From contig JAFZIY010000015.1 in NCBI GenBank assembly GCA_017554105.1, positions 62,001-126,000 of the forward strand: a DNA stretch of 64,000 bases, read 5' to 3'. Below, piece by piece: positions 12,137 to 15,782 of the stretch; within the stretch, counting starts at the first letter, position 1, and every line of letters starts with the position of its first letter. Source of the stretch: Prevotella sp. GTDB taxonomy: Bacteria; Bacteroidota; Bacteroidia; Bacteroidales; Bacteroidaceae. A program made the position numbers and the translations under genes. The notes below the pieces were generated by a model. The model worked only from the letters and a program-made list of their open reading frames with translations, searched no databases and had not been told where the DNA came from.

Positions 12137-12161
12137 GCAATTACGTACTTTTTCTTGTTGT

Positions 12162-12280
12162 TTGCGACAATTATTGAGAGCATTTCTCTATTTTGTCGCA
12201 AATAATGTCGTTTGTCGCAACAAACACAACAGAAATAAATCACTTTTTTAGGAACATGAGTATAAACACTATTACCTTTG
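12162..12280 (+). promoter_or_regulatory. Three-site operator and promoter of peptide gene A
   Basis: TTGCGACA at 12162-12169 (inverted) and TGTCGCAA at 12194-12201 and 12213-12220 (direct) precede GGAACA at 12251-12256 and a -7 element TACCTTTG at 12273-12280. Start-to-start distances are 32, 19, 38 and 22 bases. The same elements with nearly identical spacing recur before the second peptide gene (12739-12856), so one DNA-binding regulator probably controls both. Confidence 0.75.
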
Positions 12281-12320
12281 CATCAGAAACAAAAAAAACA
12301 ACATAACAATAAAACGGAAA

Positions 12321-12509
12321 ATGAAAAAGATAATAGTTGCATTTGTCATGATTCTTCAAGTTGCAGTATCACTCGACTTGCTGACAGCAGACTTCGCAAA
12401 GGACAACGAGTCTAACGATGCAGAGATCGCTGCTTCGTCATGCAACACAAACAACTATATCGAAGTTTCCGACATGAACGAACTCGAGACATACATGTTT
12501 ACAGAATAG
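12321..12509 (+). CDS. Small exported peptide A, 62 residues
   Basis: The peptide starts MKKIIVAFVMILQVAVSLDL, a hydrophobic leader that could be a signal peptide or a membrane segment, followed by an acidic part with a single Cys (AASSCNTNNY) and the end ETYMFTE. Cleavage and final form are not predictable. The gene has a well-formed promoter with a 41-base leader between the -7 element and the ATG, an A-rich region before the start typical of Bacteroidota, and regulatory sites duplicated at the next small gene; this makes it more than a chance frame. No family recognised. A signal peptide, bacteriocin-like or stress peptide are all possible. Confidence 0.65.
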   Translation: MKKIIVAFVMILQVAVSLDLLTADFAKDNESNDAEIAASSCNTNNYIEVSDMNELETYMFTE

Positions 12510-12664
12510 ATATATATAATCTATACTATGATTACACGTAAAGGTTAATATTTATAGGGTTATTAGTTACAAAAAGGTCATTATTACGAGTAGTAGAAAG
12601 ACTAAATGCTTAGTATTTCTGACACAGAGGTCGGTTTAACCTGAGTTAAGGCACAACGACCGAG

Positions 12665-12701
12665 TCGCCGAGACTTCCAGTTTTTTAGGAAGTCTCGGCG
12701 A
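12665..12701 (+). terminator. Strong hairpin after peptide gene A
   Basis: Arms 12665-12678 and 12688-12701 form a perfect 14-base stem (TCGCCGAGACTTCC) with a 9-base loop AGTTTTTTA. Only a weak T run follows (CTGTTTTA), so it may act as terminator, attenuator or mRNA 3' end protector for the peptide A transcript. The 391 bases between the two peptide genes hold only this hairpin, a weaker GGTCG/CGACC stem upstream, and the second promoter. Confidence 0.65.
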
Positions 12702-12738
12702 ACTGTTTTACCATATTATATCTCTGGGAATACCGTCG

Positions 12739-12856
12739 CTGCGACAGATATAAACCCTTTTTGTCCGTTTTGTCGCGATAGGCAACGGATGTCGCAACAA
12801 GTATTGTCAAAAGGACGGAGAAAAGTTGGAACACCTCCGGAATCGTCATATATTTG
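12739..12856 (+). promoter_or_regulatory. Three-site operator and promoter of peptide gene B
   Basis: CTGCGACA at 12739-12746 (inverted), TGTCGCGA at 12771-12778 and TGTCGCAA at 12790-12797, then GGAACA at 12828-12833 and the -7 element TATATTTG at 12849-12856. Distances are 32, 19, 38 and 21 bases, matching the first promoter within one base although the sequences between the sites differ. Confidence 0.75.
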
Positions 12857-12900
12857 CAGATGTAGAAACGGAATAATAACAATTTAAAAACAACAACATT

Positions 12901-13032
12901 ATGAAAACAACAGAGAGTATATCATTCGTGAAGAGAATCAGTAACATGATGAAAAAAATCGGTGAGTGTTACGACGTCATCGGAAAGTACACCAACCAGT
13001 CATTGTATGTCGATAGGTTCTTCTTCTTTTAG
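12901..13032 (+). CDS. Small peptide B, 43 residues
   Basis: Frame from ATG at 12901 to TAG, encoding a basic, possibly amphipathic N-terminal part (MKTTESISFVKRISNMMKKI), one Cys (GECYDVIGKY) and a striking C-terminal FFFF. There is no signal peptide. It has its own promoter (-7 at 12849-12856, 44-base leader rich in A) that copies the layout of the peptide A promoter, so it is likely a genuine gene controlled with peptide A. It is too short for ordinary gene calling. No family or function recognised. Confidence 0.6.
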   Translation: MKTTESISFVKRISNMMKKIGECYDVIGKYTNQSLYVDRFFFF

Positions 13033-15014: not shown

Positions 15015-15782
15015 ATGACAATGAAAGATTATTGGAAAATAGTTGCTATCAGCATAATGTGTGGGGCATGTGCCACAACACGACAACCGGGCAACAGCAA
15101 AACCGATGATACAAGCCAGTTCGTGAACATCACAGACGTCGTGCCCGATGCAATACTTGAGATAAGATACCACGGTACTTACAACTTCGTGGGACAGCGC
15201 ATCGACGGTTATCAGCAACCGACGGCTTTGCTCACCAAGCAGGCAGCAAAAGCATTGAAGGCAGTAAGCGACGACGTTAAGGAGCAGGGCTACAGACTGA
15301 AGATTTATGATGCATACCGTCCTCAGAAAGGTGTCGACCACTTCGTGCGCTGGTCGAAAGACATCCCCGACACTCTGATGAAGACATATTTCTATCCCGA
15401 TCTTGACAAGAGTGTGCTCTTCGCCCAAGAATACATCATGGAGAAAAGCGGCCACACACGAGGCTCAACCGTTGACCTTACCCTATTCGACATGAAAACA
15501 GAGAAAGAACTGGACATGGGAGGCACCTTCGACTGGTTCGGACCGGAGAGCCATCCAGACTTCTGTGGAAATCCCGAAACAGGCGAATACACTGGCGACA
15601 ACCACAAAAGTCCTACTGGACGTAGCATAACAGCAGAGCAGTTCCGCAACCGCATGATACTCAGAGCTGCTATGTTGCGCCATGGTTTCAAGCCTCTCGA
15701 CTCAGAGTGGTGGCACTTCACTCTGCGCGAAGAACCGTTCCCCGACACTTATTTCACTTTCCCCGTGAAGCAACTGAAATAG
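15015..15782 (+). CDS. VanX-type D-Ala-D-Ala dipeptidase lipoprotein (M15)
   Basis: Zinc peptidase of 255 residues that in this family cuts D-alanyl-D-alanine or similar cell-wall dipeptides. Zinc and catalytic motifs are complete: KIYDAYRP (Arg of the active site), SGHTRGSTVDLTLF (SxHxxGxxxD, two zinc ligands) and EWWHFT (catalytic Glu and third ligand His). The N-terminus is a lipoprotein signal (IMCGAC, lipidated Cys), so it acts in the periplasm or at the outer membrane. Normal recycling or salvage is more likely than vancomycin resistance, since no vanH/vanA neighbours exist. A second ATG six bases in (15021) is an equally plausible start. Confidence 0.88.
   Translation: MTMKDYWKIVAISIMCGACATTRQPGNSKTDDTSQFVNITDVVPDAILEIRYHGTYNFVGQRIDGYQQPTALLTKQAAKALKAVSDDVKEQGYRLKIYDAYRPQKGVDHFVRWSKDIPDTLMKTYFYPDLDKSVLFAQEYIMEKSGHTRGSTVDLTLFDMKTEKELDMGGTFDWFGPESHPDFCGNPETGEYTGDNHKSPTGRSITAEQFRNRMILRAAMLRHGFKPLDSEWWHFTLREEPFPDTYFTFPVKQLK

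What the first reader, a model, noticed from the sequence alone, without database searches (positions are those of the whole stretch)
12137..13032. Two tiny peptide genes under duplicated, identically spaced three-site promoters
Before each of two unrelated small frames (62 and 43 residues) lie one inverted and two direct copies of TGTCGCAA (positions 12162, 12194, 12213 and 12739, 12771, 12790), then GGAACA and a TAnnTTTG -7 element. Start-to-start distances are 32/19/38/22 and 32/19/38/21 bases. The DNA between the sites differs, so spacing is conserved beyond simple duplication. This suggests one regulator switching on two peptides together, perhaps a signalling, toxin-like or stress pair. 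The second peptide ends in FFFF and has a single Cys. The function is unknown.
Basis: seen in the sequence. Interest (0 to 1): 0.85.

Follow-up and report, generated by a model that had tools for sequence, protein, structure and literature searches.

The report
Three-site promoter regulon with Prevotella peptides
Two tiny bacterial genes share an unusually rigid three-site control region that turns out to serve a whole set of genes in rumen bacteria, probably run by one sensor-regulator module, and one of the two peptides belongs to a peptide family that in some genomes sits right beside that regulator.

Summary
The two promoters are two of eight such sites in this genome (reversed control 0). 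The pattern occurs in 49 of 200 genus genomes, own included, and in none of 294 other genomes of the order examined. In 126 of 134 distinct sites the -7 element starts 57-60 bases after the start of box 3.

The likely regulator is an AraC-family protein with a coiled-coil-like N-terminus, often encoded with a SpoIIE/HATPase phosphatase and a STAS protein. It co-occurs with the sites (39 both, 141 neither, 10+10 mismatched, p 7e-23; without the 7 genomes that supplied the profile 32/141/10+10, p 3e-19). Around its gene lie 26 sites in 80 loci, 17 in 72 after dropping loci like the profile's own; 1.2-3.8 expected.

Both peptides look like real coding genes. Peptide 1 has one convincing homologue in 398 genomes. 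Peptide 2 belongs to a new family of 13 intact members, all with the promoter; seven were found by sequence alone, four lie directly behind the regulator gene. Binding and peptide function are untested.

The parts
12162..12169 (-). box 1 (inverted), TTGCGACA on the + strand, promoter of peptide 1
   Evidence: read directly; with G028 24/24 box bases agree against 19/35 spacer bases
12194..12201 (+). box 2, TGTCGCAA
12213..12220 (+). box 3, TGTCGCAA
12251..12256 (+). GGAACA in the -33 region; its place matches 'gga' of the consensus TTgga
12273..12280 (+). -7 element TACCTTTG, 60 bases after the start of box 3
12321..12509 (+). peptide 1, 62 aa; signal-peptide-like N-terminus (by eye), acidic remainder with one Cys
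   Evidence: G028 homologue 66% identical; dN/dS 0.24; no Pfam or NCBIfam match
12663..12704 (+). strong hairpin between the two genes, terminator-like
   Evidence: -28 kcal/mol, z -5.48 against 200 shuffles; not reported by the terminator scan
12739..12746 (-). box 1 (inverted), CTGCGACA on the + strand, promoter of peptide 2
   Evidence: with G028 21/24 box bases agree against 12/35 spacer bases
12771..12778 (+). box 2, TGTCGCGA
12790..12797 (+). box 3, TGTCGCAA
12828..12833 (+). GGAACA within TTGGAACA, -33 region
12849..12856 (+). -7 element TATATTTG, 59 bases after the start of box 3
12901..13032 (+). peptide 2, 43 aa, member of a new peptide family with an aromatic C-terminus ('SRFYNPY' in the clearest members)
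   Evidence: family of 13 intact members; synonymous change exceeds non-synonymous against G028 (Fisher p 8e-4)

Best explanation
Both peptide genes belong to a genus-restricted regulon. Its promoters are Bacteroidota promoters (-7 TAnnTTTG) made dependent on an activator that binds three copies of TTTGTCGCAA: two direct copies 19 bases apart and one inverted copy 32 bases further out, at a fixed distance from the -7 element. The activator is most likely an AraC-type (HTH_18) protein of about 186 residues with a coiled-coil-like N-terminus, often encoded together with a sensor that carries a SpoIIE phosphatase plus an RsbW-like HATPase domain, and with a STAS protein. An outside signal would set the phosphorylation state of the STAS protein and so free or hold the activator, which then switches on T6SS genes, secreted and surface proteins, small peptides and, in some genomes, its own operon. 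Peptide 2 is one of a family of short basic peptides with a conserved aromatic C-terminus that carry this promoter and in 4 of 13 cases lie directly behind the activator gene; the best guess is a feedback or signal peptide of the module. Peptide 1 is probably a secreted, lineage-specific product. Shown by computation: promoter architecture, regulon, co-occurrence and linkage, coding nature, peptide family. Inferred: binding by this protein, the partner switch ending in it, and both peptide functions.
For: Pattern: 8 hits in own genome vs 0 reversed control; 49 of 200 genus genomes, 202 sites, control 0 in all 200; 0 of 294 other order genomes. Geometry: -7 starts at 59 (90), 60 (30), 58 (4), 57 (2), 69 (1), absent there (7) of 134 distinct sites. 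Regulator: HTH_18 E 9e-16; presence (160 bits or more) vs sites over the same 200 genomes 39/10/10/141, p 7e-23; at 240 bits 36/6/13/145, p 1e-22; 27 of 28 genomes with 3 or more sites have it; without the 7 genomes that supplied the profile 32/10/10/141, p 3e-19. Linkage: 26 sites in 20 of 80 loci around the gene, control 0, all with a -7 at 58-60; 17 sites in 13 of 72 loci after dropping 8 loci alike to the profile's own; expected 1.2-3.8. Sites stand before the SpoIIE-STAS-activator operon in G133 and G218 and before a SpoIIE-STAS pair in G182. In the own genome boxes 1 and 3 with a -7 at 59 precede the group MACPF lipoprotein, clostripain, SpoIIE, STAS, activator. Peptide 2 family: 7 of 7 members found by sequence alone have boxes and a -7 at 59/60.
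Against: No transcript or binding data. Ten genomes have sites but no activator at 160 bits, ten the reverse; G007 and G049 (94% and 91% complete, 2 sites each) have no such match, and G009 has 10 sites with only distant homologues (about 96 and 85 bits). The bit cut-off was chosen after seeing the table. Shared ancestry inflates the co-occurrence; no tree-aware test was run. 60 of 80 activator loci hold no full site, though some hold weaker ones. The own genome has three homologues, so which one binds is open, and the boxes before its module lack box 2 and were not found by the genome search. Peptide 2 has no recognisable export signal. Seven of 134 sites lack the -7.
Confidence: 0.72

Rival explanations
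1. The regulon is real but the regulator is another protein, for example a LytTR response regulator, and the AraC-type gene is only a frequent neighbour and target.
For: Two site loci lie near a LytTR response-regulator gene (L046, L083); the own genome has three LytTR proteins.
Against: The three own LytTR loci (about 3 kb each) hold no site (best 10 mismatches). The AraC-type gene tracks the sites and is linked to them. No such profile was run for LytTR or other regulators, so this is not excluded.
Confidence: 0.13
2. Peptide 2 is an antibacterial peptide, part of a competition arsenal, not a signal.
For: Net charge +3 to +10 in 14 sequences (the unproven L049 included). Co-regulated T6SS genes TssC and TssD and two short double-glycine-like peptides in G020 (L137, L141, by eye).
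Against: A conserved C-terminal motif and a place directly behind the activator gene in 4 of 13 cases suggest a specific partner. No immunity gene or exporter is recognisable next to it in the window.
Confidence: 0.3
3. Peptide 2 acts inside the cell as a small protein that binds the STAS, HATPase or coiled-coil part and tunes the module.
For: No signal peptide or leader by eye; position behind the activator gene in L225, L240, L279, L287; same promoter.
Against: In the other 9 no module gene is near: none in the roughly 3-kb loci of 7 of them, in the 12-kb G028 locus, or on the window's contig, where no activator match lies. No interaction data.
Confidence: 0.27
4. The boxes are a mobile repeat spread with its cargo, not a regulatory site.
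For: Tandem copies in some genomes, some with a repeated hairpin (L069, L073, L074).
Against: Spacers are unlike each other (mean identity 0.41 among the 8 own sites, boxes 0.90), the -7 distance is fixed, and the own sites precede different kinds of gene.
Confidence: 0.03

Closest known systems
AraC/XylS-family activators (for example AraC, SoxS, AdpA)
   Same: HTH_18 domain; PDB relatives AdpA, AraC, SoxS by sequence profile. A 19-base direct repeat and an upstream position suit AraC-type proteins (recalled).
   Different: Coiled-coil-like N-terminus (by eye) instead of a ligand-binding domain; a third, inverted site 32 bases away; no NCBIfam model reached its cut-off.
RsbU/RsbV/RsbW and SiaA-type partner-switching modules
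   Same: SpoIIE phosphatase, STAS protein and RsbW-like HATPase.
   Different: Phosphatase and HATPase are in one protein with a PDC/Cache-type region, and the third gene is an AraC-type regulator (outputs of known modules recalled).
Bacteroidota promoter (-33 / -7 TAnnTTTG)
   Same: -7 element and TTgga in the -33 region (consensus recalled).
   Different: Rigid upstream three-site array.
Peptide quorum-sensing systems such as ComCDE or Rgg/SHP (recalled)
   Same: Small peptide gene next to, and probably controlled by, a sensor-regulator unit.
   Different: No exporter, receptor or activity shown; other sensor type and phylum.
FopS sRNAs (Rfam RF04319)
   Same: U-rich leader plus hairpin behind some three-site promoters looks alike by eye.
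   Different: These copies did not reach the Rfam cut-off; the one FopS hit (L136) has no three-site promoter.

Membership tests
AraC/XylS family (proposed regulator) | HTH_18 domain above the curated cut-off | tested here: met
   PF12833 58.4 bits against 33.6, E 9.1e-16
AraC/XylS family (proposed regulator) | binds the three boxes and activates | not testable with these tools
   only co-occurrence and linkage
Partner-switching module | SpoIIE-type phosphatase, STAS protein and RsbW-like HATPase encoded together | tested here: met
   in L070 PF07228 E 7e-51, PF13581 E 4e-22, PF01740 E 1e-17; SpoIIE and STAS relatives both found in 53 of 80 activator loci, at least one in 68
Partner-switching module | phosphorylation-dependent partner swap of the STAS protein controlling the regulator | not testable with these tools
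   inferred
Bacteroidota promoter | TAnnTTTG -7 element | tested here: met
   127 of 134 sites have it 57-69 bases after the start of box 3
New peptide family (peptide 2) | significant sequence similarity among members | tested here: met
   members not in the profile when found: L279 E 6.6e-5; L287, L291, L293, L294, L295 E 2e-24 to 4e-4; L323 E 9.5e-10. L303 (E 0.02) and L328 (E 1.4e-3) are weak and were accepted partly for their promoter
Peptide pheromone | export, outside activity, cognate receptor | not testable with these tools
   nothing shown
Double-glycine leader bacteriocins | GG leader | tested here: not met
   neither window peptide contains GG. L137 and L141 look so by eye, but the leader pattern flagged none
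FopS sRNA (hairpin transcripts of relatives) | Rfam gathering score | tested here: not met
   one hit in nine loci, not at a three-site promoter

The most novel reading that the evidence does not exclude
A peptide-based cell-cell signalling circuit in Gram-negative Bacteroidota: short SRFYNPY-type peptides are made under control of, and sensed directly or indirectly by, a Cache-type sensor phosphatase whose partner switch ends in an AraC-type activator, which by positive feedback turns on the peptides, a T6SS and other secreted factors.
Probability: 0.2. Interest if true: 0.93.

Novelty: new variant of a known kind. Interest (0 to 1): 0.78.

Why it matters
It gives a candidate regulator, its operator and a testable gene set for a large group of poorly studied rumen bacteria, and ties a new small-peptide family to it. 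If the partner switch ends in an AraC-type activator, it widens the known outputs of such modules. The fixed geometry makes the regulon searchable in any genome of the genus, and the peptides are short enough to synthesise and test.

Tried and rejected
LytTR regulators were tried first as the activator and given up for lack of nearby sites. Peptide 2 alone found no convincing homologue in 100 relatives (best outside match E 0.03); only family profiles did. Peptide 1: in 398 genomes only G028 is convincing; three weak hits (E 9e-4 to 6e-3) match residues 1-39 inside long frames. Alignment A1 held a 39-aa peptide of G019 (L049) whose membership is unproven; it was left out of later profiles and the last profile found nothing in G019. 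The 542-aa lipoprotein of L071 and the 563-aa one of L070 gave no Pfam match, so MACPF is claimed for one own-genome protein only. Eight paper searches showed no account of the motif or of SpoIIE with AraC in Prevotella in an open-access library; only listings and starts of abstracts were seen, no paper was read. They added the circularity controls and a uniform promoter scan, and lowered the count of peptides 'found by sequence alone' from nine to seven.

Full report
Observation. The single word is only mildly enriched in the window, but the full pattern with up to three mismatches has 8 hits in the 3.12-Mb genome and none for the reversed control. In 7 of these 8 the TAnnTTTG element starts 59 or 60 bases after the start of box 3, in the eighth at 69, about one helical turn more.

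Spread. The pattern was found in 49 of 200 genomes of the genus (own included), 202 sites, with no reversed-control hit in the 200. Of 295 genomes of the order at least 90% complete only the window's own matched; the other 294 include one of the same genus and three of the same family, and the reversed control gave 7 hits in 3 of them. Many genomes of the genus have no site, so the regulon is patchy. A scan of named genomes with the regulator profile found 115 relatives and kept the best 80; their titles say Prevotella, Prevotellaceae, Bacteroidaceae, Bacteroidales or, once, Muribaculaceae, and where an animal or organ is named it is mostly a ruminant one.

Geometry. From the loci fetched up to, 134 distinct sites with enough flank were collected (sites near a locus end were dropped; orthologous sites that differ in sequence count separately). 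The -7 element starts at 59 in 90, 60 in 30, 58 in 4, 57 in 2, 69 in 1, and is absent there in 7; every other offset scanned held at most 2. The consensus shows TTgga in the -33 region and A/T-rich box extensions. Box 3 thus lies some 60-70 bases before the expected start, which suits an activator acting from upstream (recalled).

Regulator. Among genes near sites one set recurs: a SpoIIE/HATPase protein, a STAS protein and a protein first called COIL. COIL is an AraC-family protein (HTH_18, E 9e-16) with a heptad-rich N-terminus (by eye). Over the same 200 genomes its presence (160 bits or more, a cut-off set after seeing the table) and that of sites agree in 39 with both and 141 with neither, against 10 and 10 mismatches (p 7e-23); at 240 bits 36, 145, 6 and 13 (p 1e-22). 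Of 28 genomes with 3 or more sites 27 have it. Because the profile was built from genes found near sites, I repeated the count without the 7 genomes that supplied it: 32, 141, 10, 10, p 3e-19. The exception, G009, has two distant homologues whose N-termini look membrane-bound. The 80 loci around the gene (1,074,894 bases) hold 26 sites in 20 loci, reversed control 0, all with the -7 at 58-60. Dropping 8 loci that share 500 bases or more at 85% identity with the profile's source loci leaves 17 sites in 13 of 72 loci (960,456 bases); 1.2-3.8 are expected from three estimates of genome density. 60 of the 80 loci have no full site; some have weaker ones. Nothing here corrects for shared ancestry.

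Own genome. It has three homologues of the regulator. One ends a gene group of MACPF-domain lipoprotein, clostripain-type protein, SpoIIE, STAS and regulator; before this group boxes 1 and 3 stand at the right distance with a -7 at 59, but box 2 is decayed, so the genome search did not report it. One homologue is without the partner genes, one is a more distant paralogue.

Targets. 116 of the 134 sites have an ORF of 30 aa or more in the expected range; they fall into 64 clusters and singletons, the largest being 15 PepSY-like, 11 lipoprotein-like, 4 plus 3 TssD, and SpoIIE in 3. Pfam was run on one or a few members each. Several singletons are probably not genes.

The two peptides. Peptide 1: G028 has a 66% identical homologue at the same place, dN/dS 0.24; no other convincing one in 398 genomes. 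Peptide 2: the G028 counterpart is 30% identical with the same length; synonymous change exceeds non-synonymous (p 8e-4; peptide 1 p 7e-5, counts rounded). Neither has a Pfam or NCBIfam match.

Peptide 2 family. Peptides behind the regulator gene in L225 and L240, each with its own three-site promoter, resemble peptide 2. A profile of these, peptide 2 and the G028 peptide found as next best of 14,051 small ORFs in the fetched loci a 48-aa peptide behind the regulator in L279 (E 6.6e-5), whose promoter has one extra base between boxes 2 and 3. Profiles of 5 and 11 members were then run on 398 genomes each. All 57 loci returned (30 and 27, some genomes in both) were scanned alike for boxes with up to 6 mismatches and one base of gap play plus a -7 at 57-61: 19 have it, 38 do not. 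The 19 are 12 places: own, G028, G182 (the L279 place), G536 (L287), G628, G526, G210, G694, G673, G690, G652 and a remnant with an in-frame stop in G109 (L292). Counting the intact ones with L225 and L240 gives 13 members. Seven (L279, L287, L291, L293, L294, L295, L323) were found by sequence alone, and all seven have the promoter; L287 is nearly the same peptide as L225. L303 (E 0.02) and L328 (E 1.4e-3) were accepted partly because they have the promoter. L225, L240, L279 and L287 lie directly behind the regulator gene; near the 7 others with 3-kb loci no module gene was seen.

Mechanism and limits. I conclude that an AraC-type activator, probably under a partner switch, controls these promoters (about 0.72). 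Signal, binding and peptide function are inferred. Peptide 2 as signal, as intracellular tuner or as antibacterial agent remain open with comparable odds.

Noticed in passing
L069 5253-8486, L073, L074, L135, L136, L138, L140, L060, L127: In several genomes three-site promoters precede no clear ORF but a repeated U-rich stretch with a conserved hairpin (15 predicted pairs, 6 with a compensatory change, 15 sequences). The profile has 29 hits at E up to 0.01: 19 behind boxes, 10 not, of which 3 are on the opposite strand. It resembles FopS sRNAs but reached no Rfam cut-off.
   Followed up: partly
L136 2339-2403: A FopS sRNA (Rfam RF04319, 68.3 bits) without a three-site promoter.
   Followed up: partly
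L069 1-4369, L073 1-3860: Tandem three-site copies of G127 and G049 lie beside genes that look like DNA methyltransferase and restriction genes (by eye).
   Followed up: no
window 15015-15782: M15 D-Ala-D-Ala dipeptidase-like gene with no three-site promoter here; relatives in G133 and G218 have one.
   Followed up: partly
L077 4761-4838: In G028 two overlapping patterns on opposite strands form a symmetric four-box array between divergent genes; only the - strand one has the -7 at 59, the other has one at 39.
   Followed up: no
L137 (site 573), L141 (site 3677): Two short ORFs in G020 behind three-site promoters look like double-glycine leader peptides by eye.
   Followed up: no
L133 2949-5494, L084 2128-4582: In T6SS loci a relative of the regulator lies between a TssB-like gene (by eye) and TssC, with a three-site promoter right behind it in L133.
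   Followed up: partly
L189 4740-5546, L190 4529-5179: G009, with 10 sites but no close regulator, has AraC-type homologues that seem to start with a membrane segment (by eye).
   Followed up: no
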